NCBI RefSeq assembly: GCF_900109525.1 | Contig: NZ_FOAN01000005.1 | Location: 248,001-312,000 of the forward strand | Length of the DNA: 64,000 bases | Reading direction: 5' to 3' | Source: Allobosea lupini | Lineage (GTDB): Bacteria; Pseudomonadota; Alphaproteobacteria; Rhizobiales; Beijerinckiaceae | Shown here: positions 12,577-50,576 of the stretch, in pieces | Numbering within the stretch: position 1 is the stretch's first letter | Layout of the letters: every line of letters begins with the position of its first letter | The notes under the pieces: generated by a model | Told to the model about the DNA's origin: nothing | The model's database searches: none | The model's input: the letters and a program-made list of their open reading frames with translations, nothing else | Made by a program: the position numbers and the translations under genes

Positions 12577-12641
12577 TCCGGCACGGCGCGTTTTCTCGCG
12601 CCTGGCGCGCAATCTCTCCTTCCCTTTCCGAGCGAGGCGCT

Positions 12642-12666: not shown

Positions 12667-12686
12667 TCGATTGCGAGGAGCGCGGC

Positions 12687-30781: not shown

Positions 30782-30849
30782 TCTTTGCCGACGACCGGTC
30801 ACTATCGACCCAACAAGAACAGACAGAACCAGATATCGGGAGGAAGACC

Positions 30850-31887: not shown

Positions 31888-31942
31888 TCGTGCAAGTGAG
31901 CGCACGCTGACCTCTGACATCTGAGACGAGAGGCGAGAGACG

Positions 31943-34129: not shown

Positions 34130-34144
34130 GGATACGTTGCAGCC

Positions 34145-35206
34145 ATGCCCAAGGCCGGCCCCGCCTCAGTCGCGTTCCGCAATGTCAGCATGCGCTACGG
34201 CGCGGTGACGGCGGTCGACAATGTCAGCTTCTCGATCGAGGCCGGCAAGCTCGTCACGCTGCTCGGTCCCTCCGGCTGCGGCAAGACCACGACGCTGCGC
34301 ATGATCGCCGGGCTGGAGATCGCCAGCGAGGGCCAGATCCTGATCGGCGACAAGGACGTCACCCGGCTCTCCGCCGCCGATCGCGACGTCAGCATGGTCT
34401 TCCAGTCCTATGCACTCTTCCCGCATATGAACGTGCTCGAGAATGCCGCCTACGGCCCGACCGTGAAGGGCCTGCCCAAGGCCAAGGCGCAGGAGATGGC
34501 GCTGGAGAAGCTGGCGCTGGTCGGCCTCAAGGGCTTCGAGAAGCGTTTTCCCTCGGAGCTCTCAGGCGGTCAGCAGCAGCGCGTCGCGGTGGCCCGCGCC
34601 CTCGTGCTGGAGCCACAGGTCCTGCTCTTCGATGAGCCGCTCTCAAATCTCGATGCCAAATTGCGCCGGCGCGTGCGCGAGGAGATTCGCGAACTGCAGC
34701 AGACGCTCAACCTCACCGTCGCCTATGTCACACACGATCAGGAGGAGGCGCTCGCCGTCTCCGACCGCATCATCGTGATGTCGAATTCCCGCATCGCCCA
34801 GGAAGGCACGCCGCGCCAGCTCTATGAGGAACCCGCCGACGCCTTCGTGGCCGACTTCATCGGCGACGCCAACATGGTCGACGTCACCGTGAAATCAGTC
34901 GCCGACGGGCGGGCTGCCGTCGCGATCGGTCCGGCGAACGTCTCATTGGCGGCGCGCGGCCTGCAGCCGGGCCCCGCGAAGGCAGCCATCCGGCCGCAGA
35001 GCCTGCTGGTTTCGCGCCATGAAAGCCAGGGCACACTGCCGGGCAGCGTCCGCAAATGCGCTTATCTCGGCAACCATCTCGACCTGATGATCGAGACCGC
35101 GGTCGGGGAACTCTTCGTCATCAGCCACGATGTCGACGACATGCTGCTGCCGGGCACGCCTGTCTGGCTCTCCTTCGCCAGCTCGGGCGTGATCCTGGTG
35201 CCCTGA
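34145..35206 (+). CDS. ABC importer ATP-binding protein, FbpC/PotA-like
   Basis: 353 residues. Walker A is GPSGCGKT at 41-48, the signature is LSGGQQQRVAVARAL about 140, and Walker B is LLFDEPLSNLDAK about 162, with the switch His in VTHDQEEAL. The last ~110 residues form a TOBE regulatory domain. It drives the permease immediately upstream. Last gene of the rightward inositol operon; the convergent MipA-like gene starts its stop 8 bases later, leaving no room for a terminator. Confidence 0.95.
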   Translation: MPKAGPASVAFRNVSMRYGAVTAVDNVSFSIEAGKLVTLLGPSGCGKTTTLRMIAGLEIASEGQILIGDKDVTRLSAADRDVSMVFQSYALFPHMNVLENAAYGPTVKGLPKAKAQEMALEKLALVGLKGFEKRFPSELSGGQQQRVAVARALVLEPQVLLFDEPLSNLDAKLRRRVREEIRELQQTLNLTVAYVTHDQEEALAVSDRIIVMSNSRIAQEGTPRQLYEEPADAFVADFIGDANMVDVTVKSVADGRAAVAIGPANVSLAARGLQPGPAKAAIRPQSLLVSRHESQGTLPGSVRKCAYLGNHLDLMIETAVGELFVISHDVDDMLLPGTPVWLSFASSGVILVP

Positions 35207-35214
35207 GTGTCTAC

Positions 35215-36105
35215 TCAACCGCCGATGTTGAAGGAATAGCTCGCGCCGATGCCGACCGAGAACTGGTTGCGCTGCCCCAGCCTGTCGACCAGAGGCGAGT
35301 TGCCGGCGTCCCCGACCAGCCGGTCGTAGCGGGCGAACAGCGTGGTCGAGAAGCTCGGCGACCACGCATATTCCAGCGACGAGGCGAGACCGACCGATTT
35401 GGCGCCGGCACCGGGCTTGTAGGCGGAAATCGTGCCGTTGAGCGCAGCCTCTCCCGGCAGCACGCCGAAATTCCGGCGCATATAGGAAGCGCTGCCGAGC
35501 GAGGCACGTGGACCGACGGCGAAGGTGAAGGCGCCGAAGCGCTCGACCCAGTCGGCCGAGAAGTCGGCGACCACGCCATGATGCCCGTTGAAGCCCTGGC
35601 GGACTTCGACACGGGTGCGCAACCGCTCGGGGATGACCCAGTACTCGGCGAAGACGCCGGCCTCGATCGCCCAGGGCACGTCGCGCATGCCGAGCAGCCG
35701 GATATTAGAGCCTGAGTAACGACCGGAGCGATAGGCGCCGACCACGCCGACATCGAAGCGATCAGTGTCGTAGATGGCGTAGTCCAGGCTGTCGTCGGGG
35801 GCGCTGAACCCGGCCGGCTCCCCGGCGCGGCGCCAGGACAGGGACGGCATGAAAGACGGCCCGGCGGAGTTTGCTCCGTCATATTTCGGGCCGACCTGGA
35901 ACGAGCCGCCCAGCGTGACGATCCAGCCCTTGGCCGGAGTCGGATCGGTCAGGATCTTCTTGGTGTCGTCATCGTCGTCGTCGTCATCGTCGTTCGCGCG
36001 CACCACCCCGTTGGAGAGGACGAGCAGCGCGGCGATCCCGGCCAGGACGGCGACGTGCCGGCGCCGGCCGCGGGCTGGACGTTCGTGACGTACGAGAGAA
36101 AGCAT
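35215..36105 (-). CDS. MipA/OmpV-family outer-membrane protein with an Asp9 tract
   Basis: 296 residues. A long signal peptide (to about residue 37, VVRA) is followed directly by a run of nine aspartates (about 39-48) and then a beta-barrel of the MipA/OmpV family, ending in alternating strands and SYSFNIGG. The D9 run is encoded by a GAC/GAT trinucleotide repeat (35967-35996), so its length may vary between strains. An acidic, surface- or periplasm-facing tail could bind cations. It follows the response-regulator gene by 23 bases on the same strand and is probably part of its operon. Confidence 0.87.
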   Translation of the reverse strand: MLSLVRHERPARGRRRHVAVLAGIAALLVLSNGVVRANDDDDDDDDDTKKILTDPTPAKGWIVTLGGSFQVGPKYDGANSAGPSFMPSLSWRRAGEPAGFSAPDDSLDYAIYDTDRFDVGVVGAYRSGRYSGSNIRLLGMRDVPWAIEAGVFAEYWVIPERLRTRVEVRQGFNGHHGVVADFSADWVERFGAFTFAVGPRASLGSASYMRRNFGVLPGEAALNGTISAYKPGAGAKSVGLASSLEYAWSPSFSTTLFARYDRLVGDAGNSPLVDRLGQRNQFSVGIGASYSFNIGG

Positions 36106-36128: not shown

Positions 36129-37501
<1,373 letters not shown>

Positions 37502-37505
<4 letters not shown>

Positions 37506-39228
37506 GCCGGTGCTCCCGGTTTCGCCCGCGGCAGGGTGATGGTGAAGGCTGCGCCCCGCCCCGGTTCGCAGACGCAGGTGGCGCTGCCGCCATGGGCCTC
37601 CGCCACGGTCTGCACCTTTGCGAGCCCGAGCCCTGAGCCCTTGGCCTTGGTGGTGAAGAACGGGTTGAAGATCTCCGGCCGGATCGCATCCGGCACGCCG
37701 GCGCCCTCGTCGCTGATCGTCAGCGAGACCCCCTCCCCGGTGGCGCGCAGGCTGGCCTGGATCGTGCCGCCCTCGGGCATCGCGTCGATCGCGTTGAGGA
37801 CGAGGTTGAGACAGGCCTGGTAGAGTTGATCGGGGTCGCCGAGGACGGTCCCCCCCCGCTCGTATCCTCGACGGTCAGCTTAATCTTCCGGCGAGAGAAC
37901 TCGGGCGCCGCGATGTCCGCGACGCGATCGATCACTGCACGCAAGGGGATCTCGATCTTCACCGGCGGCTTGGGCTGCGCGAAATCGAGAAAGTCGCGGA
38001 CCAGCGTCTCGATGCGGCGCACCTCGTCGATAACGTAGCCCAGCATCTTCTCTTCAGCATTGCCGAGCTTGGCGCGGTTGCGGACGACCTCCGTCGAGGT
38101 CTTGATGATACCGAGCGGGTTGCGCACCTCATGGGCGATCACCATTGCCGCCTGCCCGAGCGCCGAGAGCCGGTCCTTTCGCCGGAGCTCCGCCTCGAGC
38201 TCCTGCAGCTTGCCGAGCTGCTCGGCCATGCCGTTGAAGCCGGTGGCGAGCTCGACGATCTCGCGCCCGCCGCCCGCCGAGACGCGCTGGCCGAAATCCC
38301 CGGCCGCGATCGCGCGCACGCCATGGGTCAAAGCGCGCAGCGGCCGCACCAGCAGGTCCGAGGTCAGGATACCGACGACGATCGAGATCGCGCTGCCGAG
38401 CAGGAAGATGCCGAGGAACAGGCTCTCGCGGCCAAGCTGCTCGAAGAACCCCGCCTCGCTGCGCATGCCGATGAAGCTGATCGCCGCGAGCTGGCCGTCG
38501 ATGCCGCGCAGTCCCGCATAGACAGCGCGGTAGGCGCCGCCATCGGCATCGGGATCGAAGATCTCGTCCTCCCCGGCCTCCAATCTCGCCCGTATGGCCG
38601 CAGGTATGACGGCCGTGCGATCGGAATGCGTCTGCATGATCAGTTCGGGCTTGCCGTCGAACAGGGCGAAGAAGCGGATCTCCAGCGCCGTCACCACCTT
38701 GATGCCACCGAAGGAGCTTTCGTCGAGCCAGGTCCCGACCAGGAGATTGGCCGGCTGGCCGCCGATCTGCACGGCCTGGACGGCGCCTGCCATGATCCAG
38801 CGCTTGCCGTCGGTCTCGATGCGGAACAGGCCGAGGCTGGTCTCGGTCGGCAACGGGGTGAGGCTGCTGAAATCTCGCGTCTTGAACAGCACTTCGCCGC
38901 CCGGGCGATAGATCGCGATCAGGTCGTAGCCGACCGAGTTCAGGACCGCAAACTCGCGCTCGACGGTCTTCTGCATCTTCTGGTCGCTGCTCGATTGCTC
39001 GAGCCGGTGACCGATCACGCCGGCGACGCGCTGCGCCTCCTGCGTCGCCTCGGCGATCTCGAGCGCGAAGAAGCGCGAGGTGTCGCCGAGCCATTGCTCG
39101 ACATTGTCCTCGAAGGCATCGGAGATCAGCCTGGCGGCGATGAAGGCGGAGGCAAGCATCGCCGGCACGCTGACCAGCATGAATCCGATCACCAGCCTGA
39201 ACCTGAGCGATGCCATCCGCGTCGACAT
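37502..39228 (-). pseudogene. Sensor histidine kinase gene with a frameshift at a G8 tract
   Basis: Read with one base added, the gene encodes 575 residues: a membrane segment (about 9-30), a periplasmic sensor region, a second membrane segment (about 270-290), HAMP (RPLRALTHGVRAI), HisKA with H-box VIAHEVRNPLG, and an ATPase with N-box NLVLNAIDA, G1 DEGAGVP and GSGLGLAK. As sequenced, the frame breaks at eight G on the coding strand (37850-37857): upstream it ends EDTSGGG, and the continuation TVLGDPDQLYQ is in another frame. One missing G restores the protein exactly. It may be a sequencing error, a real null or a phase switch. The 3' end overlaps the regulator gene (ATGA), so the pair is cognate. 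Confidence 0.88.
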
Positions 39229-39268
39229 GCCGGATCTCGTTTCCCTCACCTCCGGCCGCCGGCCACCG

Positions 39269-39703
39269 TCATGGCTGCCGCGACCAGGTGTCGTCGTCGC
39301 AGATCAGACCGCCGAGTACGCAGCCGCGCATGACGAGGCTCCCGGAGGAAGCCAGTTCGAGCGTCGTGCGATAGGTCTTGCCATCGGCGGGATTATAGCC
39401 CTCGCCCTCGAGGCCGCCTTTCGCAGCCGGCTTGAAGCCGGAGAGCACCTGGATTCCCATCAGCGAGCGCTTCCGCAGCCCCTCATTGGGATTGTAGATG
39501 TCGAAGCGCTCCTCTTTCAGCCAGACGATCTTGCCGCACAGTGCCGGGCCGCAGCGGCTGATCGCGATCTCGGATTCCCCGTCGGAATCGCGCCAGCGCC
39601 CGACGATCTCGGTCATCGGATCGGCCAGGGCCGGCAGCGCCGCCATCCACGCAGTCGCAACCAGCACGATCAGGCCGAGTCCAAGGCCAGCTCCACGTTT
39701 CAT
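39269..39703 (-). CDS. DUF2147-family periplasmic protein
   Basis: 144 residues with a signal peptide (MKRGAGLGLGLIVLVATAW, cleavage near ALA about residue 27). The mature part has the DUF2147 pattern: VGRWRDSDGESEIAISRCG, LCGKIVWL, MGIQVLSGFK and the closing LGGLICDDDTW, with conserved cysteines. Fold is lipocalin-like in this family; function is unknown. Its start overlaps the stop of the small transporter gene (ATGA), so it is the last coupled member of the leftward biosynthesis-type operon. Confidence 0.85.
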   Translation of the reverse strand: MKRGAGLGLGLIVLVATAWMAALPALADPMTEIVGRWRDSDGESEIAISRCGPALCGKIVWLKEERFDIYNPNEGLRKRSLMGIQVLSGFKPAAKGGLEGEGYNPADGKTYRTTLELASSGSLVMRGCVLGGLICDDDTWSRQP

Positions 39704-40092
39704 TCGTCCCCTCCGAGCAGGAACACGCCCGCGATGATCAGCGCGATTCCGCCTGCACGAACCAGGTCGATATGTTCGTCGAAGGTGAACCAGGCGAACA
39801 GCGGAACTGTGACATAGACCAATCCCGTCATCGGGAAGGCGCGGCTGAGCGGCGTGTCGCGCAGGATGACCATCCAGACGACGAAGACGCCGATATAGCC
39901 GAGCGTCGCCAGCCAGACGCCCGGCAGCGACACCGCCTTCGCCATCATGGCGAGGCCGAAGTCCATGTCGCCGAGCCCGTCGGCGCCCCATTTGAAGGCG
40001 AGCTGGGTACCGGTGTCGAGCACGATGAAGGTGAGCCAGATCGCCAGCTGACGGCCCCATGCACTGCTTGCCGGTGGCGAGATGCTGCTCAT
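39700..40092 (-). CDS. Small DMT/EamA-type membrane transporter (half-size)
   Basis: 130 residues with four hydrophobic segments (about 13-30, 47-70, 78-97 and 105-127). It is of SMR or half-EamA type, likely to act as a dimer. ATG 40092 overlaps the stop of the acyltransferase gene (ATGA). A second half-size transporter lies in the same operon at 42105; the two could form a heterodimeric exporter. Substrate unknown, presumably the product of the neighbouring enzymes. Confidence 0.85.
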   Translation of the reverse strand: MSSISPPASSAWGRQLAIWLTFIVLDTGTQLAFKWGADGLGDMDFGLAMMAKAVSLPGVWLATLGYIGVFVVWMVILRDTPLSRAFPMTGLVYVTVPLFAWFTFDEHIDLVRAGGIALIIAGVFLLGGDE

Positions 40093-41249
40093 GCGGCCTT
40101 CTTTCGGGCGATTGCGGCGAGATCGGGGTCGAAGCGCTCGAAGCCGAGCCAGGGACTCAAGGACCGCAGCGCCCATTGCAGCGGCGCGAGCCGGTGGCGG
40201 ACATGCAGGGTCGAGGGCACCAGCCGGCTGCCGAAGCGCAGCTTCGCGGCATAGGCGGTCTGGCCGCTCTGGAGCTTGTCGATGCCGCGCTCCAGACAGA
40301 AGCGGACATTCGCCATCCAGCTCACGGCGTAGAGATTGTGCTCGCGGGCCAGCGGGTAGCGCATGCCCAGGAACTTGTCGATCACCCGGTCGGGCTCGAC
40401 CAGCAGCAGGTTGAAGGCGGCGAGCTCCTCGCCGATCCAGTAGAGCACGAACACCGCCCGCTCGCCGAGCGCACGCGAGACCGCGCCGAAATAGCCGGGC
40501 GGCAGCACTTCGAGATCGCCATAATCCAGCCCGCTCTGGGCTCGCGTCGCCGCATAGAGCGCGTCGATCGTCGGCTCCAGCCCGGTGATGTCGGTATGGA
40601 AGGCGATGCGGACCTCGCTCGCCTTGGCGAGCTTGCGCTTGATGTCCTTGCGCGTCGCCGCGGAGAGCGAGGCGAGATAGGCGGCTTCATCCTTGAAGGG
40701 CAGGTCGAGCAGCGCGATCGGCAGGCTGCCGAGCCGGGCGAAGCCCGCCTGCTTCAGGGCGCCGCCGAAGCCCTTTTCCTCGGCTGGGGCCAGGTCCTTC
40801 CAGACCACCAGATGCGCCTTCTCCTCGGCAGCCTGCCGCTCCAGCGCGGCGGCAAGCGCCTGGAAGGCCGCAGCGCGCCCAGCGGCGTCGAGCTTCGGCG
40901 AGAAGCCGAGATGGCAGCGCTCGGCATAGGGCGAGCCGATGCAGAGCACCTTCAGCGTGACCAGTCCCGGCACATGGCGGAACAGGGCGTCGCCGAAGCC
41001 CCTGAGCTTGCCCTGCAGCGGCGTGTCGAGCCGATAGCTCAGCCGGAAGAACGGCACCACCGCGACGATCTCGCCGTCGGATCCCGCACAGGCGGCCGCC
41101 ATGCGCAGGCCGACACCGGCCTGCGCGGCGACCGCGTCGCAGGCAGTGTAATAGGCATGGCACTCGGCCTCGCCGGGCAGGCAGCCGTCCCAGGCGGCAG
41201 CGGAGACATCCGCGATGCCGGCCAGGATATGGCCTTCGGGCGCGCTCAT
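40089..41249 (-). CDS. GNAT-type N-acyltransferase (BioF2/FemAB-like)
   Basis: 386 residues of the BioF2-like/acetyltransferase-6 group: two tandem GNAT folds, with the segment FGDALFRHVPGLVTLKVLCIGSP in the first half and KFLGMRYPLAREHNLYAVSW in the second. Relatives transfer acyl or aminoacyl groups to amines in capsule, lipid and natural-product pathways. Both ends overlap neighbours by 4 bases (ATGA), so it is translated with the hydrolase and transporter. Substrates cannot be read from the sequence. Confidence 0.8.
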   Translation of the reverse strand: MSAPEGHILAGIADVSAAAWDGCLPGEAECHAYYTACDAVAAQAGVGLRMAAACAGSDGEIVAVVPFFRLSYRLDTPLQGKLRGFGDALFRHVPGLVTLKVLCIGSPYAERCHLGFSPKLDAAGRAAAFQALAAALERQAAEEKAHLVVWKDLAPAEEKGFGGALKQAGFARLGSLPIALLDLPFKDEAAYLASLSAATRKDIKRKLAKASEVRIAFHTDITGLEPTIDALYAATRAQSGLDYGDLEVLPPGYFGAVSRALGERAVFVLYWIGEELAAFNLLLVEPDRVIDKFLGMRYPLAREHNLYAVSWMANVRFCLERGIDKLQSGQTAYAAKLRFGSRLVPSTLHVRHRLAPLQWALRSLSPWLGFERFDPDLAAIARKKAA

Positions 41250-42091
41250 TCGGCTGCCACGACACGCAGCGGCGTCACCGGGCGGTGGGCCTTGGCAAGC
41301 CGCGCAGCCAGCGCCAGTGAGCGCTCGATCACGATGTCATGCTGCTGGTCGATGGTGACGAGGTGATAGCTGTCGTCGAGGATCACCGCATCGACCAGCC
41401 CGCCGAGCTTGCGCTGGATCTCGAAGGCGTTCCTGAGGTCGGCGATATCGTCTTCGCGCGGATGGACCAGCAGGGCCGGGCATTTGACCTGCGGGAGCTC
41501 GCGGCGAGTGACCGCGATCAGGTCCCACATCTGCTTCAGCGCGCCGGACGGCGTGCCGAGCAGGCCGGCGGTCGAGCTGTCGCCGCTCGTCAGCGAGGAG
41601 ACCACGAGGGCCCGGGAGCGCGTGTCCTTCAGCCCATAGGGCTCGCGCTCGACGAAACTGTAGCGCCGCCCGAACGGCGTGTTGATGAACCATTTCAGCA
41701 GGAAGGCATAGCGCGGGATCGACCAGCCATCATACCAGAAGGTCGGTGCGTAGAGCGCGAGCCCATCGACCTCTTTCGGGCGCTGGGCGGCCACATGCAT
41801 CGCCAGCACCGCGCCCATGGATAGGCCGCCGACGATGACCGTATCGCAGATCTCGCGCATGCGCTCGAGCTCGTCAAAGACGCTCTGCGTCCAGTCGCGC
41901 CAGCCGGTGGCGAGGATCTCCGCCTCCCCGGCGCAATGCCCGGCGAGCTGCGGGCAGTGCACGGTATGGCCGGCCCGGTGCAGCGCACGGGCGACGAAGC
42001 GCAGCTCGACCGGGGTGCCGCCGAGGCCGTGGATGAGCAGGAAGCCGGTGCGGTCCCCGGCGAGGCGGACACTGAAATCGCGCTTGGTCAT
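41246..42091 (-). CDS. Alpha/beta-hydrolase, carboxylesterase-like
   Basis: 281 residues with HGLGGTP at 21-27 (oxyanion region), nucleophile Ser91 in GLSMG, an Asp in HPREDDIAD and a late His in SYHLVTID, a complete triad in the order of Est30/monoacylglycerol-lipase-like esterases. Cytoplasmic, no signal peptide. In an operon with an acyltransferase it may act as a thioesterase, an amide/ester hydrolase or a ring-closing enzyme. It ends on the acyltransferase start (ATGA). Confidence 0.88.
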   Translation of the reverse strand: MTKRDFSVRLAGDRTGFLLIHGLGGTPVELRFVARALHRAGHTVHCPQLAGHCAGEAEILATGWRDWTQSVFDELERMREICDTVIVGGLSMGAVLAMHVAAQRPKEVDGLALYAPTFWYDGWSIPRYAFLLKWFINTPFGRRYSFVEREPYGLKDTRSRALVVSSLTSGDSSTAGLLGTPSGALKQMWDLIAVTRRELPQVKCPALLVHPREDDIADLRNAFEIQRKLGGLVDAVILDDSYHLVTIDQQHDIVIERSLALAARLAKAHRPVTPLRVVAAE

Positions 42092-42104
42092 CGGAACATG
42101 TCCG

Positions 42105-42467
42105 TCAGGCTGTTCTGGCGACGATGATGACGCCGCAAGTGATCAGGAAGGAGCCGAGCCATTGCCGCCGGCCGACGCGCTCGCCGAGGACGACGGCGCT
42201 GGCCAGGGTGATGGCGAGGAAATTGGCGCTCGCGATCGGAAAAGCGATCGAGAGCGGCACTTCGGCGAGAATGCGCAGCCAGATGAAGAACTCGGCGACA
42301 TAGGTCGCGAGCCCGGCGGTGATCCAGCCGCAGCGCGCCACTGCCGCCGCCGTGGCCCGGAAATCGGCGCCCTGCGGCAGCCGGTCGGCGCCGATCTTGA
42401 AGAGGATCTGGCCGGCGACGTCGCAGATGATCGACGCCACGAACCAGAGGATGATCGTCGTGTTCAT
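42105..42467 (-). CDS. Small multidrug-resistance-like / half-EamA transporter
   Basis: 120 residues with four membrane segments and the conserved Glu-less SMR-like start MNTTIILWFVASIICDVAGQILFKIGA. It is close to the small EamA proteins related to ArnE/ArnF undecaprenyl-phosphate-aminoarabinose flippases. Its start overlaps the arginase-fold gene stop (ATGA); the hydrolase begins 13 bases after its stop. With the second half-size transporter downstream it may form a two-subunit flippase or exporter. Confidence 0.85.
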   Translation of the reverse strand: MNTTIILWFVASIICDVAGQILFKIGADRLPQGADFRATAAAVARCGWITAGLATYVAEFFIWLRILAEVPLSIAFPIASANFLAITLASAVVLGERVGRRQWLGSFLITCGVIIVARTA

Positions 42468-43387
42468 GACAGCACCCGCTGGAAGCAGTCGATCAGGCTC
42501 GCATTGATGCGGGCATTGACGCAGAGTTGCTCGGGCGTCGGCCTGAAGCGCGGCGGATGGTCAAAATAGGCGAGCGTCGCACGGAAGGGGTCGCTGAAGC
42601 GCGGCTCCGACCAGTCGCCGCAGACATCGGCACCGACGATCCGGCGCTCGCTTGCCAGCCGCTCCACAGCCGCCAGCAGATGGCGCAACGGCAATTCGCC
42701 CTGGTCCCAGTTGGTGCAGGCGTCGCCCGGCCCGAGCACGTCCTTGTCGATCGTCAGCCAGACCGACGAGGTCGGGATCGCCGTGATCAGCTCGTCGAGG
42801 AAATCCGACCAGTCCTCGTCGGCGAGGTTGCGCCAATGCAGATGGCCGCTCTCCTGGCGATAGCTCGCGGTCTTGCCATAGCGTCCCCACACCCGCGAGG
42901 GCTCGTGCCGCCAGGGATAGAGCGCGATCCGCCCCTCGGCCACGGCCCGCAAGTTTGCGAACTGCCATTCGGGACGCACGAGATCGTCGCTGCACGGGCC
43001 GATCGTCACGACCTTGTGGACTTGCGGCAGCTCCAGCGCCCGGTTGACCCAGGCGCCGCAATTCACCGTGGCGGGAAAGCTGACCCAGTCGGGATGGTTG
43101 TCGAAGTGCACGACCGTGACCGGCTCCTCGACACGGCCCAGCAGCACCGAGGTGACGTGATGGAAATCACCCGAGCCGTAGAAGAAGACGGGCACGCTCT
43201 TTCCCTCGCCGTCACATTGGCCAAGGCGTTGTAGCAGCTCGGCCTTGGCCCGGCGGCTCGCGACGATGCGCATGGCGCCGGCAAGGTCGGCGGCCTCGAT
43301 GCACGCGGCCGTGCCGGCATCGATGCGCCGGCGCAGCGGCTCCTGCGCCGCCACGCTACCGTCGAGGTCGATCACGCGCAGGCGCAA
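42464..43387 (-). CDS. Arginase/ureohydrolase-fold protein
   Basis: 307 residues. The two-metal ureohydrolase motifs are recognisable in order: GSGDFHH at 71-77, DNHPD at 96-100 (the arginase DxHxD) and DKD at 214-216 (arginase DxD). So the metal site looks complete, but the sequence is otherwise far from arginase, agmatinase and formiminoglutamase. It should hydrolyse a guanidino, amidino or N-acyl bond, or may be a deacetylase-like relative. It lies 16 bases after the aminotransferase gene. Confidence 0.8.
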   Translation of the reverse strand: MRLRVIDLDGSVAAQEPLRRRIDAGTAACIEAADLAGAMRIVASRRAKAELLQRLGQCDGEGKSVPVFFYGSGDFHHVTSVLLGRVEEPVTVVHFDNHPDWVSFPATVNCGAWVNRALELPQVHKVVTIGPCSDDLVRPEWQFANLRAVAEGRIALYPWRHEPSRVWGRYGKTASYRQESGHLHWRNLADEDWSDFLDELITAIPTSSVWLTIDKDVLGPGDACTNWDQGELPLRHLLAAVERLASERRIVGADVCGDWSEPRFSDPFRATLAYFDHPPRFRPTPEQLCVNARINASLIDCFQRVLS

Positions 43388-43403
43388 GGCCCGTCTCCGC
43401 TGC

Positions 43404-44852
43404 TCAGGCGCCGGCGACGCGGGCGAAGAGCTGGTCGAGCAGCTCGATCGCGAGGTCGATCTCGGCGTAGCTCATGGTCAATGCCGGCGCGAGGGTGATG
43501 ACGTTCTTGTAGTAGCCGCCGATATCGAGCACGAGGCCGTAGCGCTTGCCGCCGACCTCGAGGTCGGCCTTCATGCCCTCGTCGCACATCAGGTCGACCA
43601 GCCGCTTCGACGGGGTGAAGCTGTCATGCGGCTCGCAGATCTCGATCCGCAGCGCCATGCCGAGCCCGTCGACCTCGCCGACGATCCTGTGGCGGCGCTT
43701 CAGCCCCTGCAGCCCGTCGAGGAAATACTTGCCCTTGGCCATGACCATGGTCTCGTAGTCCTCTTCCTGCATCATCTTCATCGCCTCCAGCGCGACGGCG
43801 GTGCCGAGCGGGTTGGCGTTGAAGGTGGAGTGGGTCGAGCCCGGCGGGAACACGGTCGGGTTGATCAGCTCTTCCTTGGCCCAGATGCCGGAGAGCGGGT
43901 TCAGGCCGTTGGTCACCGCCTTGCCGAAGACGATCACGTCCGGTTGCACGCCGAAATGCTCGATCGACCAGAGCTTGCCGGTCCGGTAGAAGCCCATCTG
44001 GATCTCGTCGACCACCAGCAGGATGCCGTGCTGGTCGAGCACCTTCTTGAGCTCGCTGAAGAAGTTCGGCGGCGGGATGACGTAGCCGCCGGTGCCCTGC
44101 AGCGGCTCGACATAGAACGCCGCGTACTCGGCCTCGCCGACCTTGGGATCCCAGACGCCGTTGTATTCGCTCTCGAACAGCCGGGCGAATTGCTGCACGC
44201 AGTGATGCCCGTACTCCTCCTTGCTCATCCCCTTGGGGCCGCGGAAATGGTAGGGGAAAGGGATGAAATGCGCGCGCTCGCCGAAATGGCCGAAGCGGCG
44301 GCGATAGCGATAGGACGAGGTGATCGCCGAGGCGCCGAGCGTGCGGCCGTGATAGCCGCCCTCGAAGGCGAACATCAGGCTCTTGCCCTTCTTGGCATTG
44401 CGCACGAGCTTCAGTGAATCCTCGACCGCCTGGGCGCCGCCGACATTGAAATGGACGCGCCCCTTGGCGCCGAACTTGCGCTGCGCATCTTGCGCGATCA
44501 TCGCCGCAAGCTCGATCTTCTCGCGGTGCAGATACTGGCTCGCCACCTGCGGCAGCGTATCGATCTGGCGCTTCAGCGCAGTGTTCAGGCGCGGATTGGC
44601 GTAGCCGAAATTGACGGCCGAGTACCACATCTGCAGGTCGAGGAAGCGGTTGCCCGCCGCATCGAGCATGAACGAGCCCTCGCAGCCCGAGAAGATCTTC
44701 GGGAACTGCGTGTAGTGGACGGTGTCGCCATGCGAGCAGTACTGCGCCTCGAGCGCGAGAAGGCGGGCTTCCTCCTCGGCCAGCGTCGCTGCCGGCGCGG
44801 AGGAAATATCGACCTGCTCGGCGCGGTCGAGCAGGGTGAAGCCGTCATCCAT
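43404..44852 (-). CDS. Class III (PLP) aminotransferase
   Basis: 482 residues of the ornithine/4-aminobutyrate-type aminotransferase family. The PLP lysine is Lys311 in VFGKAVTNG; VDEIQ at 281-285 holds the cofactor Asp; GGAQAVEDSLKL (138-149) binds the phosphate. The specificity loop (CEGSFMLDAAGNRFLDLQM) is not diagnostic. It would move an amino group between an omega-amine and a keto acid or aldehyde, making or using the amine handled by the downstream acyltransferase. It overlaps the phosphatase gene by 8 bases. Confidence 0.9.
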   Translation of the reverse strand: MDDGFTLLDRAEQVDISSAPAATLAEEEARLLALEAQYCSHGDTVHYTQFPKIFSGCEGSFMLDAAGNRFLDLQMWYSAVNFGYANPRLNTALKRQIDTLPQVASQYLHREKIELAAMIAQDAQRKFGAKGRVHFNVGGAQAVEDSLKLVRNAKKGKSLMFAFEGGYHGRTLGASAITSSYRYRRRFGHFGERAHFIPFPYHFRGPKGMSKEEYGHHCVQQFARLFESEYNGVWDPKVGEAEYAAFYVEPLQGTGGYVIPPPNFFSELKKVLDQHGILLVVDEIQMGFYRTGKLWSIEHFGVQPDVIVFGKAVTNGLNPLSGIWAKEELINPTVFPPGSTHSTFNANPLGTAVALEAMKMMQEEDYETMVMAKGKYFLDGLQGLKRRHRIVGEVDGLGMALRIEICEPHDSFTPSKRLVDLMCDEGMKADLEVGGKRYGLVLDIGGYYKNVITLAPALTMSYAEIDLAIELLDQLFARVAGA

Positions 44853-45537
44853 TGATCATGTCCTTGCGTGCAGGGGCCGCCGGTTCGCTCGTGGTTTCCG
44901 ACAGCAGGGTTTCGAGGAGGCCGACGGCCTCCGAGAAGGTGTTGAACGGGCGGTAGCCGATGCCGTTCTCGCGGCAATGCGCGATCAGGCTCTTCTTGGC
45001 GAAGACGAGGTCGGCCTGGCCGGCGACGCAGAAATCCGAGCGACCATCGCCGACCAGGAGGGTCAGCGGCCGGGAAAGGCTGCTGGCGACGCGGCACTTG
45101 CAGGTGCCGCTGGCGCAGCCGCCTGAAGGGTCGGCATGCGGCGAGGTCAGCCGCCAGCGATCGCCGGGCAGCTGCTCGATATGGTTCGCGACGACGGTCA
45201 GGCCGCTGAGGCCGGCACGGCCCAAAAGCGCATGAATCGTGCGGTCGAGCCCGTCGGAGACAACCGTCACCGGAATCCCGGCGCGCTGGCACAGCCGCAC
45301 GAAGGCAGCGAAGCCCCAGTCGATCGCCAGCGAGGAGACGAAGGTGTCGAACACGTCGGGCGAGGCATGCAGCAGCGCGACCTGGCGCTGCATGCATTCG
45401 CGCGAGCCGATCTTGCCGGCGACCCAGTCCGCCTCGATCTCTTCCCAGCCCGGTTCCGCGAAACGCTGCAGCACGCGGTCGGTCGTATCCTCGCGCGAGA
45501 TGGTCCCGTCGAAATCGACGATTGCCTGCCAATTCAT
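44845..45537 (-). CDS. HAD-IB phosphatase, MtnX/SerB-like
   Basis: 230 residues. HAD motif I is DFDGT at 8-12 (Asp8 nucleophile, Asp10 acid); motif II Ser/Thr lies in TVVSDGLDRT; motif III/IV is GDGRSDFCVA. Overall it resembles MtnX (methionine salvage phosphatase) and phosphoserine phosphatase relatives, but no other methionine-salvage gene is here. It is the first gene of the leftward operon, so it probably dephosphorylates a precursor that the aminotransferase then uses. Its start lies 124 bases downstream of an IclR-type operator. Confidence 0.85.
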   Translation of the reverse strand: MNWQAIVDFDGTISREDTTDRVLQRFAEPGWEEIEADWVAGKIGSRECMQRQVALLHASPDVFDTFVSSLAIDWGFAAFVRLCQRAGIPVTVVSDGLDRTIHALLGRAGLSGLTVVANHIEQLPGDRWRLTSPHADPSGGCASGTCKCRVASSLSRPLTLLVGDGRSDFCVAGQADLVFAKKSLIAHCRENGIGYRPFNTFSEAVGLLETLLSETTSEPAAPARKDMING

Positions 45538-45927: not shown

Positions 45928-45945
45928 TCTTTGGAAGCGATCCGG

Positions 45946-46731
45946 ATGTCCATTCTGACGGCAGCCGCAGACGTGCTTCGTTGCTTCTCCAGCACGCGTC
46001 ACGACGTGACCGTGACCGACCTCGTGACTCTCCTGGGCATGCCAAAGAGCAACGCCTCGCGCCTGCTCAGGGCGATGCGCGACGAGGGACTTCTCGAGAC
46101 GGTCGGCGACAGCAAGCGCTATCGCCCGGCGCTGCTGCTCGCCCAGATCGGCCAGCTCTATCGCTTCGCCGCTTCGCTGATCGACCGCGCCGACGCCGTG
46201 GTCGGACGCGTCTCCGATGAGATCGGCCACACCGGCTATATCAGCGTGCGCCGCGGCACCGAGATCATCGGCGTCACCGCTCATCCCGGCCGGCACGCGC
46301 TCAGGGTCGTCACGTCGATCGGCGACCGCATCCCCGCCTTCGCCTCCAGCACCGGCCGCGCTCTGCTCGCCAGGCTTCCCGACGCCGAGGTCCGCGCGCT
46401 CTACCCTGAGGGCTTCGTCGCGCCGTCCGAGACCGCGCCCCGCGACATGGACGAGCTTTTGGCGCGGCTGGCCGAGACCCGCCGCAACGGCTTTGCTGAG
46501 TCCCACGACGAGGCGGTGCGCGGCGTGCGCGCCATCTCGGTCGGCCTCGGCGATCCCGCCACCGGCGACGAGGTCGCGCTCTGCATCTCCTTCCCGGCTG
46601 CGACGGTCGAGCCGAGTGAGCGCCTTTCCATCATCCGTTCCCTGGCCGAAGGCGCCGCCGAGATCGCGGCCTTGACCCAGGACAAGCGCTTCTTCCCCTT
46701 GAACCTCTCATCTTCGGAGACCGCTCCATGA
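45946..46731 (+). CDS. IclR-family transcriptional regulator
   Basis: 261 residues: an N-terminal winged helix (about 1-65; DLVTLLGMPKSNASRLLRAM is the recognition region) and the IclR GAF-like effector domain (about 75-245; HTGYISVRRGTEIIGV, FASSTGRALLA). ATG 45946 is preferred to the TTG at 45931. GGAAGCGAT lies upstream. Its stop overlaps the hyuAB start (ATGA), so regulator and enzyme are co-translated. It probably binds the two matching palindromes in the divergent region and responds to the oxoprolinase/hydantoinase substrate. Confidence 0.92.
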   Translation: MSILTAAADVLRCFSSTRHDVTVTDLVTLLGMPKSNASRLLRAMRDEGLLETVGDSKRYRPALLLAQIGQLYRFAASLIDRADAVVGRVSDEIGHTGYISVRRGTEIIGVTAHPGRHALRVVTSIGDRIPAFASSTGRALLARLPDAEVRALYPEGFVAPSETAPRDMDELLARLAETRRNGFAESHDEAVRGVRAISVGLGDPATGDEVALCISFPAATVEPSERLSIIRSLAEGAAEIAALTQDKRFFPLNLSSSETAP

Positions 46732-49700
46732 GCAATCGCTGGCGCATCGGCTTCGACATCGGCGGCACCTTCACCGACTTCATCCTCTATGACGGTGAGA
46801 AGCGCTCGGTCCTTCTGCACAAGCGCCTGACCACTCCGCACGATCCGTCCGAGGCAGCGCTGATCGGCCTTGGGGAACTCGTCGAGATGGCCGGGATCAC
46901 GCTCGCCGATGTCGGCGACATCGTCCACGGCACGACCCTCGTCACCAACGCCGTGATCGAGCGCAAGGGCTCCAGGCTCGGCCTGATCACCACGAAGGGC
47001 TTCCGCGACATCCTCGAAATGGGGACCGAGCAGCGCTACGACATCTACGATCTCTTCCTGACCTTCCCCGATCCGCTGGTCTCGCGCGAGCATCGCCTTG
47101 AAGTGCCCGAGCGCATGGACCGCGACGGCAAGGTCGTGACCGCGCTCGACGCCGAAGCGGTGCGCAAGGCCGCCCGCGAGCTCGCCGCCGCCGGCTGCGA
47201 GGCGATCGCGATCTGCTTCCTCAACAGCTACCGCAACCCCGCCCATGAGCAGGAAGCGGGGCGCATCGTGCGAGAGACCTGCCCGGAACTCACGGTCTCG
47301 CTGTCGAGCGAGGTCGTCGCCGAGATCTGGGAATACCAGCGCTTCGTCACCACCGCCGCCAACGCCTATGTCCAGCCGCTGATGCGGCGCTATCTCGAGC
47401 GGCTTGAGCGCGAGCTTGCCGCCCGCTCCTTCACCGGCGCGCTCCGGCTGATGCATTCGGCCGGCGGCCTGGTCTCGCCCGAGACGGCCCGCACCTTCCC
47501 GATCCGCCTGCTCGAGAGCGGTCCGGCCGGCGGCGGCCTCGCCACGGCCCTGTTCGGCGAGCTCGCCGGCCACAAGGACGTGATCTCCTTCGACATGGGC
47601 GGCACCACTGCCAAGGCCTGCATGATCGAGGACGGCCGCGCCGAGATCGCGCCGATGCTGGAAGCCGGCCGCGTCAACCGCTTCGCCAAGGGCTCTGGCC
47701 TGCCGATCAAGGCGCCGGTGATCGACATGATCGAGATCGGTGCTGGCGGCGGCTCGATCGCGGCGATCGACGAGGTCGGCCTGCTCAAGGTCGGCCCGCA
47801 TTCGGCCGGCTCCGATCCCGGCCCGGCCTGCTATGGCATGGGCGGCACGAAGCCGACCGTGACCGACGCCAATCTCGTGCTCGGCTACTACGATCCCGGC
47901 TTCTTCCTCGGCGGGCGCATGGCGCTCGATCTCGACGCAGCGCGCAAGGCCGTCGCCACCGTCGCCGAGCCGCTCGGCCTCTCCATCGAGGAAGCGGCCT
48001 GGGGCATCCACAAGGTCGTGGTCGAGAGCATGGGCGCCGCCGCCCGCGTCCATCTCGTCGAGAAGGGCAAGGACCCCCGCCATTACGCCATGGTCGGCTT
48101 CGGCGGCGCCGGCCCCGCCCATGCCGTCGATGTCGCCCGCGTGCTCGGCGTCAGGCAGGTCATCATCCCGCCGGCCTCGGGCGCTGCCTCGGCGCTCGGC
48201 TTCCTCGCCGCGCCGCTGTCCTTCGACATGGTGCGCTCGCTGCCGGTCGAGTTCTCCGAAGGCTTCGACGCCGCCGCGGTCAACCGCGTGCTGACCGAGC
48301 TGGAGGAAGAAGGCCGCAAGCACCTGATCGAGGCCGGGGTGAAGCCCGCCGATGTCACTGTCGAGCGCACGGCCGATATGCGTCTCGTCGGCCAGATGCA
48401 CGACATCTCCGTGCCGCTGCCCTCCGGCGCGATCGATGCGTCGAGCCTGGAGGCGATCCGCACCGCCTTCAGCAAGGCCTATTCGGCCCGCTACACCTCG
48501 GTCTATGAGGGCGCCCGTCTGGAAGCGATCAACTTCCGCGTCCGCTGTGCCGGCCCGGTGCCGACGCTCTCGCTCTCCGGCGCTGCCGGCGGCGGCGACG
48601 CCACGAACAAGGTCAAGGGCAGCCGCCGTGCCTGGTTCGAGGGCGGCTGGAGCGAGGCGGAGGTCTATGACCGCTACGCCCTGCGCGCCGGAGACACGAT
48701 CAAGGGCCCGGCGATCATCGAGGAGCGCGAGGCGACCACGATCGTGCCGCCCGGCGACAGCGTCACGATCGACGAGGTCCTGAACCTGATCATCCATGTC
48801 GGCCAGGCCAATGCGGCCGAGACCACGATCACCGCCGACATGCCCCTCGCCGAGGCCGCGCGCCGCATCGAGGCCGATCCGATCTCGCTGGAGATCATGT
48901 GGAGCCGGATGATCAACGTCGTCGAGGAGATGTGGCTGACCGTCTGCCGCACCGCCTTCTCGCTGGTGATCTCGGAGGCCCAGGACTTCGCCTGCGAACT
49001 GCTCGACCCCGAAGGCGAGACGCTGGCGCACAGCCCACGCGCCATGCCGGTCTTCAACCTGACGCTGCCGCGCGCGGTCAAGGCGCTGCTGGAGCGCTAT
49101 CCGGCGCAGACGCTGAAGCCCGGTGACGTGCTGATCACCAACGACCCCTGGCTCTGCGCCGGTCATCTCTTCGACATCGCCATCGTCACCCCGGTCTTCC
49201 TGGGGAACCGCGTCGTCGGCCTGATGGGTACCGTTGGCCATGTCTCCGACATCGGCGGCACCAAGGATTCGTTGCGCGCCCGCGAGATCTACGAGGAAGG
49301 CTTCCAGATCCCGCCGATGAAGCTCTACGAAGCCGGCAGGATCAACGAGACGCTGGTCCGCCTGCTCGCCGAGAACGTGCGCAATTCCGAGCAGGTGCTC
49401 GGCGACCTGCACTCCTTCGTCGCCGCCAACGCCATCGGCACCGAGCGGCTGCAGTCCTTCCTCACCGACTACGGCATGCAGGACCTGCGCGCCCTCGCCC
49501 ATGTCGTGCAGAGCCGTTCCGAGAAGGCGATGCGCGAGGCGATCCGCGCGCTGCCTGACGGCACCTATCACGGCACCGTCTCGAACAACCCGCTCGGCAC
49601 GCCGATGACCTATCCGCTGGCGCTGACGGTGAAGGACGACACCATCCATCTCGACTTTGCCGGCGCGCCGCCACAGCTGCCGCAGGGCGGGCTGAACTGC

Positions 49701-50576
49701 ACGCTCAACTACACGATGGCGCACGCCACCTACCCGCTGAAATGCATGCTGACGCCGTCGGTGCGCGGCAATGCCGGCTGCTACCGCGCCTTCTCGATCG
49801 ATGCGCCCAAGGGCTCGATCCTGAACTGCGACAAGCCGCTGGCGGTCAACCTGCGCACCCGCACCGGCTGGTACCTGGCGCCGAATATTTTCCGCGCCCT
49901 GTCGCAGGCGGCGCCCAAGCAGGTGCAGGCCTTCACCGGCCTGCCGGTGGCGGCGAGCGTCTATGGCCGCGACCAGGCCGGCGACACCTATTCCGACATG
50001 CTCTTCGTCGGCGGCGGCCAGGGCGGCTCGGCCCATGGCGACGGCAAGTCCGGCCTGCTCTACCCGACCTCGGCGGCCAACACCTCGATCGAGACCTTCG
50101 AATCGCGGGTGCCGGTGCTGGTGGTCGAGAAGACCTATCTGACCGACTCCGGCGGCGCTGGCCGCCAGCGCGGCGGCCTCGGCCAGCGCGTGCGCCTGCG
50201 CAAGCTCTCCGATGACGGCCTGCCGACCCTGGTCTCGCTCTATCCGGAAGGGGTCAACAACCCGATCCCGGGCCTGTTCGAGGGCAAGGCCGGCGGCGGC
50301 GCCTCCGGCCGGATCATCGACGAGCAGGGCCATGTGCTGAAGGACGTCGGCACCGGCGACCTCGTCCAGGTCAGGCAGCCGCACGAGATCGTCGAGCTCG
50401 TGCTCGCCGGCGGCGCCGGCTACGGCCCGGCCTCGGAACGCTCCCGCGAGGCGATCGCCCGCGACATCGCGCTCGGCCTCGTCTCACCGGAAGCGGCCAG
50501 GCGCGATTACGGCATGCATGCCGCCCATGCCTCCCAGGATGTCGGCGAAGCCAAGACCGGCATCCTTGTTGCCTGA
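46728..50576 (+). CDS. Fused hydantoinase A / hydantoinase B (5-oxoprolinase-type ATP-dependent amidohydrolase)
   Basis: 1282 residues. Residues 1 to about 690 are HyuA, an ASKHA-type ATPase (GFDIGGTFTDF at 8-18, GGTTAK about 288, PLQGTG-like GAGGGSIA near 340); residues about 715-1282 are HyuB (PISLEIMWSRM start, then TNDPWLCAGHLFD and SVYGRDQAG). This is the fusion found in 5-oxoprolinase and in ATP-dependent N-methylhydantoinases, which open a lactam or hydantoin ring with ATP. The substrate is a cyclic amide by family; whether 5-oxoproline, hydantoin or another is open. It is coupled to iclR and followed by an OPT transporter. Confidence 0.93.
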   Translation: MSNRWRIGFDIGGTFTDFILYDGEKRSVLLHKRLTTPHDPSEAALIGLGELVEMAGITLADVGDIVHGTTLVTNAVIERKGSRLGLITTKGFRDILEMGTEQRYDIYDLFLTFPDPLVSREHRLEVPERMDRDGKVVTALDAEAVRKAARELAAAGCEAIAICFLNSYRNPAHEQEAGRIVRETCPELTVSLSSEVVAEIWEYQRFVTTAANAYVQPLMRRYLERLERELAARSFTGALRLMHSAGGLVSPETARTFPIRLLESGPAGGGLATALFGELAGHKDVISFDMGGTTAKACMIEDGRAEIAPMLEAGRVNRFAKGSGLPIKAPVIDMIEIGAGGGSIAAIDEVGLLKVGPHSAGSDPGPACYGMGGTKPTVTDANLVLGYYDPGFFLGGRMALDLDAARKAVATVAEPLGLSIEEAAWGIHKVVVESMGAAARVHLVEKGKDPRHYAMVGFGGAGPAHAVDVARVLGVRQVIIPPASGAASALGFLAAPLSFDMVRSLPVEFSEGFDAAAVNRVLTELEEEGRKHLIEAGVKPADVTVERTADMRLVGQMHDISVPLPSGAIDASSLEAIRTAFSKAYSARYTSVYEGARLEAINFRVRCAGPVPTLSLSGAAGGGDATNKVKGSRRAWFEGGWSEAEVYDRYALRAGDTIKGPAIIEEREATTIVPPGDSVTIDEVLNLIIHVGQANAAETTITADMPLAEAARRIEADPISLEIMWSRMINVVEEMWLTVCRTAFSLVISEAQDFACELLDPEGETLAHSPRAMPVFNLTLPRAVKALLERYPAQTLKPGDVLITNDPWLCAGHLFDIAIVTPVFLGNRVVGLMGTVGHVSDIGGTKDSLRAREIYEEGFQIPPMKLYEAGRINETLVRLLAENVRNSEQVLGDLHSFVAANAIGTERLQSFLTDYGMQDLRALAHVVQSRSEKAMREAIRALPDGTYHGTVSNNPLGTPMTYPLALTVKDDTIHLDFAGAPPQLPQGGLNCTLNYTMAHATYPLKCMLTPSVRGNAGCYRAFSIDAPKGSILNCDKPLAVNLRTRTGWYLAPNIFRALSQAAPKQVQAFTGLPVAASVYGRDQAGDTYSDMLFVGGGQGGSAHGDGKSGLLYPTSAANTSIETFESRVPVLVVEKTYLTDSGGAGRQRGGLGQRVRLRKLSDDGLPTLVSLYPEGVNNPIPGLFEGKAGGGASGRIIDEQGHVLKDVGTGDLVQVRQPHEIVELVLAGGAGYGPASERSREAIARDIALGLVSPEAARRDYGMHAAHASQDVGEAKTGILVA

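What the first reader, a model, noticed from the sequence alone, without database searches (positions are those of the whole stretch)
39269..45537. Eight-gene coupled operon of unknown pathway: phosphatase, aminotransferase, arginase-fold enzyme, hydrolase, acyltransferase and two half-size exporters
The sequence shows a strictly leftward run in which nearly every junction is a 4- or 8-base overlap: HAD-IB phosphatase, class III aminotransferase, ureohydrolase-fold protein, SMR/half-EamA protein, serine hydrolase, BioF2-like GNAT, second half-EamA protein and DUF2147 protein. Each fold is known, but I know no pathway with this set. The logic dephosphorylate, transaminate, cleave or remove an amidino/acyl group, acylate, export fits a small N-acylated amine or guanidine-derived metabolite, or a lipid headgroup flipped by an ArnE/F-like pair. 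The coupling implies the proteins are needed together. This is my best candidate for an undescribed system in the window.
Basis: partly seen in the sequence, partly recalled or inferred. Interest (0 to 1): 0.85.

Follow-up and report, generated by a model that had tools for sequence, protein, structure and literature searches.

The report
Conserved operon, probably making an aminolipid
A block of genes that many soil and plant-associated bacteria carry as one unit looks like a pathway that builds an amine-bearing, fat-like molecule and moves it out through the cell envelope; its product is unknown.

Summary
The eight genes are real and in order; 5 of 7 junctions overlap by 4 or 8 bases, two are gaps of 16 and 13. 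The unit is longer than reported: a histidine kinase (frame broken here), a response regulator and a MipA/OmpV protein follow. It is a conserved module. In 67 genomes of the genus, 23 have aminotransferase, phosphatase, arginase-fold and GNAT genes together, 42 have none of the four, and the 2 mixed cases have cluster genes at contig starts. The set recurs, often reshuffled, in Pseudomonas, Mesorhizobium, Agrobacterium, Rhizobium, Xanthomonas and others; all six core functions are in 83 of 113 fetched loci. Counter-examples exist: the arginase-fold gene stands alone in four loci. Neighbours recurring in a minority of loci (ketosynthase, acyl carrier protein, desaturase, CFA synthase, DevC-like ABC plus TolC) point to a lipid or lipid-like amphiphile. 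HAD-aminotransferase and hydrolase-GNAT fusions suggest two sub-steps: make a small amine, then acylate it. My best reading is an amine-headgroup lipid pathway with an ArnE/F-like SMR pair as flippase. No product is shown. Ten open-library searches, seven aimed at the set or its product class, found no description.

The parts
44845..45537 (-). HAD-IB phosphatase, MtnX-like subfamily (230 aa)
   Evidence: PF12710 2e-13; TIGR01489 93 bits above its cut-off 81.6, MtnX equivalog TIGR03333 91 of 303 not reached; profile hits 2fea 2.4e-32
43404..44852 (-). Class III aminotransferase 'AT3' (482 aa); matches 55-98% identical in other genomes
   Evidence: PF00202 1e-75; none of the 25 listed NCBIfam models reaches its cut-off; alignment A2
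42464..43387 (-). Arginase/ureohydrolase-fold metallohydrolase 'ARG' (307 aa, TTG start)
42105..42467 (-). SMR1, half-size EamA/SMR protein (120 aa), ArnE/ArnF-like
   Evidence: PF00892 9e-7; ArnE model 56 bits of cut-off 92
41246..42091 (-). alpha/beta hydrolase 'ABH' (281 aa)
   Evidence: PF12146 1e-17; nucleophile Ser in 97, Cys in 5 of 102 sequences
40089..41249 (-). Tandem-GNAT / FemX-fold acyl- or aminoacyl-transferase 'GNAT' (386 aa)
39700..40092 (-). SMR2, second half-size EamA/SMR protein (130 aa from the ATG at 40092)
   Evidence: PF00892 8e-6, just under its gathering score; ArnF model 50 bits of cut-off 99; start chosen by the 4-base overlap
39269..39703 (-). DUF2147 protein (144 aa) with one hydrophobic N-terminal stretch; accessory
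   Evidence: PF09917 2e-28; stretch 9-27; 19 of 113 loci
37502..39249 (-). Sensor histidine kinase, reading frame broken once near 37850 in this window
   Evidence: HAMP + HisKA; tblastn of the relative's kinase gives two pieces in frames -1 and -3
36129..37505 (-). Response regulator (458 aa), NtrC-type by its GAFTGA-like motif (recalled; no domain scan was run on it)
   Evidence: ORF; homologue beside the cluster in many loci
35215..36105 (-). MipA/OmpV family protein (296 aa)
   Evidence: PF06629 3e-43; recurrent neighbour

Best explanation
An accessory, envelope-regulated pathway that makes and exports an amine-bearing lipid or lipid-like amphiphile. Proposed steps, all inferred: (1) AT3 aminates a small phosphorylated keto compound and the HAD phosphatase removes the phosphate (or the reverse order), giving a small amino-alcohol headgroup; the known parallel is dihydroxyacetone phosphate to serinol phosphate, with a HAD phosphatase acting later. 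(2) The tandem-GNAT protein forms an amide on that amine, using an acyl-ACP or possibly an aminoacyl-tRNA donor, together with the alpha/beta hydrolase, which I read as an acyl-transferring or thioester-releasing Ser/Cys enzyme. Where present, a dedicated ketosynthase, ACP and (one locus) MaoC dehydratase supply the acyl chain, and a desaturase and CFA synthase adjust it. (3) The arginase-fold enzyme hydrolyses a C-N bond (deacylation or deamidination) of an intermediate. (4) The SMR pair, as an ArnE/F-like heterodimer, moves the product across the inner membrane; three loci without SMR genes instead have a related set of ABC exporters (TIGR01194 in the one scanned). A DevC-like ABC with HlyD and TolC, in some loci, and MipA/OmpV or DUF2147 in others, serve the outer envelope. 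(5) A two-component system switches it on. Shown: the gene set, its conservation as a unit, the predicted folds, the conserved active-site residues and the fusions. Not shown: any substrate, product or phenotype.
For: All-or-none inheritance in 67 genomes of one genus (23 with all four marker genes, 42 with none, 2 mixed with cluster genes at contig starts; one-sided Fisher p of 6e-16 or below for the four of six pairs computed, not corrected for relatedness). Conserved set in shuffled orders in distant lineages: all six core functions in 83 of 113 loci. Fusions: HAD-AT3 in L043, ABH-GNAT in L151 and L154 of one genus. Lipid-type neighbours: KAS and ACP each in 6 of 25 chosen loci against 0 of 40 control regions (Pfam/NCBIfam identity), a MaoC-type gene directly after the ketosynthase gene in L052, desaturase between SMR1 and ABH plus a CFA synthase directly after SMR2 in Rhizobium and Phyllobacterium, DevC-like permease in 8 of 25. 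AT3 is replaced by a GSA-aminotransferase-like enzyme (AT3b) in five of the six loci that have HAD, ARG, ABH and GNAT but no full AT3; the sixth, L049, has an AT3 fragment. Inner-membrane exporter apparently replaced in Chelatococcus/Xanthobacter-type loci. Precedent: passages of PMC11800397 (aminotransferase Cj1437 makes serinol phosphate, HAD phosphatase Cj1435 acts after amide formation) and of PMC3222319 (RtxA).
Against: No substrate is shown for any enzyme. Lipid-type neighbours are a minority feature (KAS/ACP 6, CFA 5, desaturase 2 of 25 loci) and none was noticed beside the operon in the window; the profiles were built from the same loci, so the controls test specificity, not generic relatives. 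Kinase genes are common anyway (8 of 40 controls). AT3 has lost the glutamate gate of GABA aminotransferase (E211 to T254, R398 to T453), so its donor and reaction type are open. The arginase-fold gene occurs alone in L023-L025 and L050, and its remote relatives sit by other genes in Parabacteroides and Lachnospira. Some loci lack ARG, GNAT or SMR (L145, L149, L151, L156, L159, L160), L110 has only AT3, GNAT and ARG, and L161 only AT3. The FemX/MprF-like fold of the GNAT fits aminoacyl transfer as well as acylation. In the Campylobacter precedent the phosphatase acts after the amide is made, not directly after the aminotransferase.
Confidence: 0.5

Rival explanations
1. A diffusible small N-acylated amine (a signal, toxin or metallophore-like metabolite), not a membrane lipid, made by the same enzymes and secreted by the SMR pair or ABC-TolC.
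For: SMR pairs and TolC-linked ABC pumps also export small molecules (recalled); KAS+ACP with an aminotransferase is a common secondary-metabolite logic (recalled); patchy, partly plasmid-borne distribution; the TIGR01194 family is named for cyclic peptide export.
Against: Desaturase and CFA synthase in the gene line are expected to act on acyl chains of lipids; DevC-like permeases belong to the kind that exports heterocyst glycolipids (recalled).
Confidence: 0.25
2. An Arn-like covalent decoration of lipid A/LPS or another surface glycan: an aminated unit is made, trimmed by the arginase-fold enzyme as ArnD trims a formyl group, flipped by the ArnE/F-like pair and transferred outside.
For: Aminotransferase + amidohydrolase-type enzyme + ArnE/F-like SMR pair; a DegT/ArnB-family aminotransferase beside the cluster in 8 of 25 loci; control by two-component systems.
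Against: I recognised no ArnC- or ArnT-like glycosyltransferase among the 45 neighbour clusters listed (read by eye, only some scanned); the KAS/ACP/CFA/desaturase neighbours are not explained.
Confidence: 0.12
3. An MprF-like system: the FemX-fold GNAT transfers an amino acid from aminoacyl-tRNA to a lipid or to the amine made by HAD/AT3.
Confidence: 0.08
4. A catabolic or detoxifying operon: the enzymes degrade an external amine and the SMR proteins export a toxic amine.
For: Class III aminotransferases and ureohydrolases are common in amine catabolism and SMR proteins export cationic drugs (recalled).
Against: KAS/ACP, CFA and desaturase neighbours. Amino-acid-type ABC importer genes do recur, but only far upstream of the cluster in Pseudomonas (clusters 8, 14 and 18), so I read them as local neighbours.
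Confidence: 0.05

Closest known systems
Campylobacter jejuni Cj1437 + Cj1435 (serinol phosphate aminotransferase + HAD phosphatase)
   Same: An aminotransferase and a HAD phosphatase serve one small phosphorylated compound; here the two are neighbours and once fused.
   Different: There the amine is first linked to capsule glucuronate by a separate amide-forming domain and dephosphorylated afterwards (PMC11800397, passages); here a GNAT, hydrolase, arginase-fold protein and SMR pair follow. Whether the aminotransferases are related was not tested.
Arn pathway (ArnB, ArnD, ArnE/ArnF)
   Same: Aminotransferase, amide-hydrolysing enzyme and a two-protein SMR flippase (pathway recalled).
   Different: AT3 is class III, not DegT; no sugar-nucleotide enzymes, ArnC or ArnT in the operon; SMR scores are below the Arn cut-offs.
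Ornithine-lipid type aminolipids (OlsB/OlsA, OlsF)
   Same: Proposed end product is an N-acylated amine lipid.
   Different: OlsB is a Pfam 13444 protein (PMC11631085, passages); the GNAT here is PF13480/PF04339 with FemX fold; no PlsC-type OlsA among the operon proteins scanned.
Bacterial ceramide pathway of Caulobacter (Spt, AcpR, CerR, AasR, CerS)
   Same: ACP plus N-acyltransferase forming an amide lipid that matters to polymyxin response (PMC11324152, passages).
   Different: No serine palmitoyltransferase in the operon; amine proposed to come from HAD/AT3 instead. Relationship of CerS to this GNAT was not tested.
DevBCA-TolC heterocyst glycolipid exporter
   Same: ABC permease/ATPase/HlyD + TolC next to the cluster in several loci.
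   Different: DevC model scores 58-64 bits against a cut-off of 290; not seen beside the operon in the window.

Membership tests
Arginase/agmatinase (ureohydrolase) superfamily | Ureohydrolase fold with six metal ligands (H; D-x-H-x-D; D-x-D) | tested here: met
Agmatinase or other guanidino-hydrolase | Curated equivalog score (TIGR01230 cut-off 174) | tested here: not met
   22 bits
Agmatinase or other guanidino-hydrolase | Acts on a guanidino substrate (acid/base His141, substrate Glu277 of arginase) | tested here: inconclusive
   By my motif reading Cys110 (95 of 95) stands in the place of His141; an acidic D/E258 is kept (94 of 95, one gap) but one residue off the agmatinase Glu; no assay, no coordinates inspected
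MtnX (methionine salvage phosphatase) | Curated equivalog score (TIGR03333 cut-off 303) | tested here: not met
   91 bits; subfamily TIGR01489 is met
GABA/ornithine-type class III aminotransferase | Glutamate gate E211/R398 and R141 of E. coli GABA-AT (roles recalled) | tested here: not met
   R141 kept as R170; E211 is T254 and R398 is T453; T254 in 92 and T453 in 91 of 98 rows, the five AT3b rows having N and S, the rest gaps
ArnE/ArnF flippase | Curated equivalog score (cut-offs 92 and 99) | tested here: not met
   56 and 45 bits for SMR1, 34 and 50 for SMR2; working like ArnE/F is not excluded
Ornithine-lipid OlsB N-acyltransferase | PF13444 domain | tested here: not met
   No PF13444 match at E 0.1; PF13480/PF04339 instead
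FemX/MprF aminoacyl-tRNA transferase | Tandem-GNAT FemX fold | tested here: met
FemX/MprF aminoacyl-tRNA transferase | Uses aminoacyl-tRNA | not testable with these tools
   -
DevBCA exporter (flanking, not in the window) | DevC equivalog score 290 | tested here: not met
   57.6, 58.3 and 63.7 bits for L041, L108, L149; DevC is the only family listed at E 1e-10

The most novel reading that the evidence does not exclude
A previously undescribed class of bacterial envelope lipid: a small amino-alcohol headgroup, made from a phosphorylated keto precursor by an aminotransferase-phosphatase pair, N-acylated by a FemX-fold acyltransferase with a Ser/Cys hydrolase partner, trimmed by a Cys-for-His arginase-fold enzyme, flipped by a dedicated SMR heterodimer and in some lineages delivered outward by a DevC-like ABC-TolC pump, all under envelope-sensing two-component control and spread across Alpha- and Gammaproteobacteria.
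Probability: 0.35. Interest if true: 0.82.

Novelty: new variant of a known kind. Interest (0 to 1): 0.62.

Why it matters
If right, a new amine lipid or amphiphile is made by common plant-associated bacteria (Pseudomonas, Rhizobium, Agrobacterium, Mesorhizobium, Bosea). Amine lipids can change surface charge and so the response to cationic peptides, phages and hosts. The marker genes are all-or-none within a genus, so gene-to-product matching by comparing carriers and non-carriers is directly possible.

Tried and rejected
Guanidine or polyamine pathway on the strength of the arginase fold: not adopted, because the agmatinase score is far below its cut-off and, by my motif reading, the His141 place is Cys.

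Methionine salvage on the strength of the MtnX-like phosphatase: rejected as a label (cut-off not met). The solo arginase-fold genes of L023-L025 lie near an MtnA-type gene (one homologous cluster; IF-2B family for L024), left unexplained.

The hydantoinase-type gene and the IclR regulator to the right (45931-50576) as part of the unit: rejected, because of the 80 loci they accompany the cluster only in L028 and L030-L033 (L050 has a 28% IclR hit; L029 and others are cut short).

Elongation factor P, EpmA, FAD-oxidase and redoxin genes beside the cluster in L159/L160 (those of L159 scanned): treated as unrelated neighbours.

Literature: ten searches gave no paper on the set; others were aimed at parallels (serinol, ceramide), and 35 and 77 returned nothing at all. 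Otherwise listings and abstracts' starts were seen. Passages were read in PMC3222319, PMC11800397, PMC11324152, PMC11631085 and PMC5817063; the last (Pantoea accessory regions with mipA, eamA and agmatinase entries) did not match the set in the passages seen. bioRxiv and most subscription papers are not held.

First gene calls by longest ORF were spoiled by shadow ORFs in these G+C-rich genomes and were replaced by codon-scored calls and profile searches on six-frame ORFs. Organism names behind G handles were not available.
Full report
WHAT IS THERE. The window holds a leftward run from 45537 to 35215. Junctions: HAD/AT3 overlap 8, AT3/ARG gap 16, ARG/SMR1 overlap 4, SMR1/ABH gap 13, ABH/GNAT overlap 4, GNAT/SMR2 overlap 4 when SMR2 starts at 40092, SMR2/DUF2147 overlap 4. 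Three more genes continue the run: a sensor histidine kinase 19 bases on, whose frame is broken once near 37850 in this genome, a response regulator overlapping the kinase's end by 4 bases (NtrC-type by a recalled motif; not scanned), and a MipA/OmpV protein 23 bases further. The nearest named relatives fetched are Bosea, so the window is probably Bosea (inference).

IS IT A UNIT. Three kinds of test. (a) Copy number: profiles of the HAD and arginase-fold families each give one hit, and that of the GNAT family one strong hit, in the whole 6.1 Mb genome, all in this operon (the GNAT profile also has one weak hit at E 6e-7). AT3 has eight weaker class III relatives elsewhere, best 32% identical. 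(b) Phyletic profile in 67 genomes of the genus: AT3 in 23, ARG in 25, GNAT in 25, HAD in 24. All four are in 23 genomes and none in 42. Two are mixed: G718 lacks only AT3, with ARG at a contig start and HAD on another contig; G659 has GNAT and two ARG fragments at contig starts, no HAD or AT3. Both look like assembly breaks (inference). (c) Synteny elsewhere: ARG occurs in 11 of 297 genomes drawn from the order and AT3 at E 1e-130 in 25 of 398 drawn from the phylum, own genome counted in both. I searched 113 loci with profiles. Of the 113, an aminotransferase (AT3 or AT3b) is in 104, ABH in 104, ARG in 103, HAD in 101, GNAT in 94 and SMR in 93; all six are in 83. These counts lean on the search anchors (ARG for L017-L107, AT3 for L108-L110 and L143-L161), many contigs are cut short, a few loci are the same place fetched twice, and Bosea-type and Pseudomonas loci make up most of the set. 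An earlier table of 86 chosen loci gave 73 with all six; it left out 27 loci, among them the solo-ARG loci, L027 and L049. The order differs between lineages: Pseudomonas has ARG-SMR1-SMR2-...-HAD-AT3-ABH-GNAT-HK-RR, and Xanthomonas sacchari has the genes on both strands. Conservation through rearrangement is stronger evidence than conserved order. Controls: 40 regions of 19.9 kb from 10 of the same genomes held none of ARG, GNAT, ABH, HAD, AT3, AT3b, SMR, MipA, KAS, DegT, ACP, DESAT, DUF2147, DevC or TolC at the same thresholds; CFA appeared in 1, RR in 1, HK in 8. As the profiles come from the cluster loci, this control shows specificity of these subfamilies and does not count generic relatives.

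COUNTER-EXAMPLES. ARG stands alone in L023-L025 and L050. L110 (a Bartonella plasmid) has only AT3, GNAT and ARG and L161 only AT3 at the thresholds used. L049 has an AT3 fragment only. L145, L149, L151, L156, L159 and L160 lack ARG and one or both of full GNAT and SMR near AT3 (L151 has a GNAT piece). L041, L043, L045 and L047 lack SMR. Remote ARG relatives (29 and 23% identical) lie beside methylglyoxal synthase in Parabacteroides and beside PlsX and fatty-acid genes in Lachnospira. So HAD+AT+ABH is the tightest core, and ARG has a life outside it.

WHAT THE NEIGHBOURS SAY. Clustering codon-scored gene calls of 59 loci, naming some clusters by domain scans and others by annotation in plasmid records, and counting in 25 loci chosen to spread over lineages (two share a genus) gave: FabF-like ketosynthase and a dedicated acyl carrier protein (each 6 of 25; also X. 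sacchari); a MaoC-type gene directly after the ketosynthase gene in L052; a DegT/ArnB-family aminotransferase (8 of 25); a CFA synthase (5 of 25), in Rhizobium directly after SMR2 with its start at SMR2's last base; a fatty-acid desaturase (2 of 25), in Rhizobium and Phyllobacterium between SMR1 and ABH and in 11 of 38 tabulated Pseudomonas loci; a DevC-like ABC permease (8 of 25) with TolC (5 of 25); and MipA/OmpV (7 of 25). L041, L045 and L047 lack the SMR pair and share a further ABC exporter (one cluster); the one scanned, L047, is TIGR01194, 484 bits against a cut-off of 286. Many other clusters are plainly local neighbours, such as amino-acid ABC importers in Pseudomonas. I read the recurring set as the profile of a lipid or lipid-like product that is exported (inference).

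MECHANISM. Putting these together: HAD and AT3 make a small amine; GNAT and ABH acylate it; ARG hydrolyses a C-N bond at some stage; the SMR pair or an ABC exporter takes the product across the inner membrane; DevC-like/TolC or MipA-type proteins handle the outer envelope; a two-component system controls it. In Campylobacter an aminotransferase makes serinol phosphate from dihydroxyacetone phosphate and a HAD phosphatase removes the phosphate after the amide is formed (PMC11800397, passages); RtxA also aminates dihydroxyacetone phosphate (PMC3222319, passages). I would give a C3 amino-alcohol such as serinol about 0.2 as the actual headgroup. The general lipid reading gets 0.5; rivals are a diffusible N-acyl amine, an Arn-like decoration, an MprF-like aminoacylation and a catabolic role.

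KNOWN OR NEW. Of the NCBIfam matches listed for the operon proteins, only the MtnX-like and HAD-IB subfamilies reach their cut-offs; no equivalog listed does. The aminolipid review PMC11631085 names OlsB/OlsA/OlsF routes and, in a term search of its main text, has no occurrence of aminotransferase, phosphatase, arginase or flippase (passages). Seven paper searches aimed at the set or its product class in the open-licence library found nothing on it. It may be described in papers not held. I file it as a new variant of a known kind (a lipid-type biosynthesis and export operon with an unknown product).

Noticed in passing
window 37502-39249: The sensor kinase of the operon is split between two reading frames near 37850, while relatives L028, L030 and L031 have one open frame; a recent mutation or a sequencing error.
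   Followed up: partly
window 45931-50576: Divergent IclR regulator and a 1282-residue protein that looks like a fused hydantoinase/oxoprolinase (not scanned) sit next to the operon in five close relatives only.
   Followed up: partly
window 30778-35206: What looks like an iron-type ABC importer set (binding protein, two-domain permease, ATPase; not scanned) lies just left of the operon on the other strand.
   Followed up: no
L023-L025, around 9400-12700: The arginase-fold gene occurs without the rest of the set and close to an MtnA-type (IF-2B family) gene in all three fetched loci of one genus (L024 scanned).
   Followed up: partly
L027, 9374-10298: The arginase-fold gene is broken by a stop/frame change in this locus; ABH beside it is open.
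   Followed up: no
L108, L109, L022, L026, L151 ABH genes: The alpha/beta hydrolase nucleophile is Cys in place of Ser in five of 102 sequences.
   Followed up: partly
G692 (same genus) contigs C5, C22 and C31: One genome carries a second set of the marker genes, 73% identical to the window in AT3; G292 also has two copies.
   Followed up: no
L102, 11207-12460 and 17359-18483: A Pseudomonas locus with two GNAT genes of this family in one cluster.
   Followed up: no
L049, 7148-7588: An aminotransferase gene reduced to a fragment between intact-looking HAD and ARG genes.
   Followed up: no
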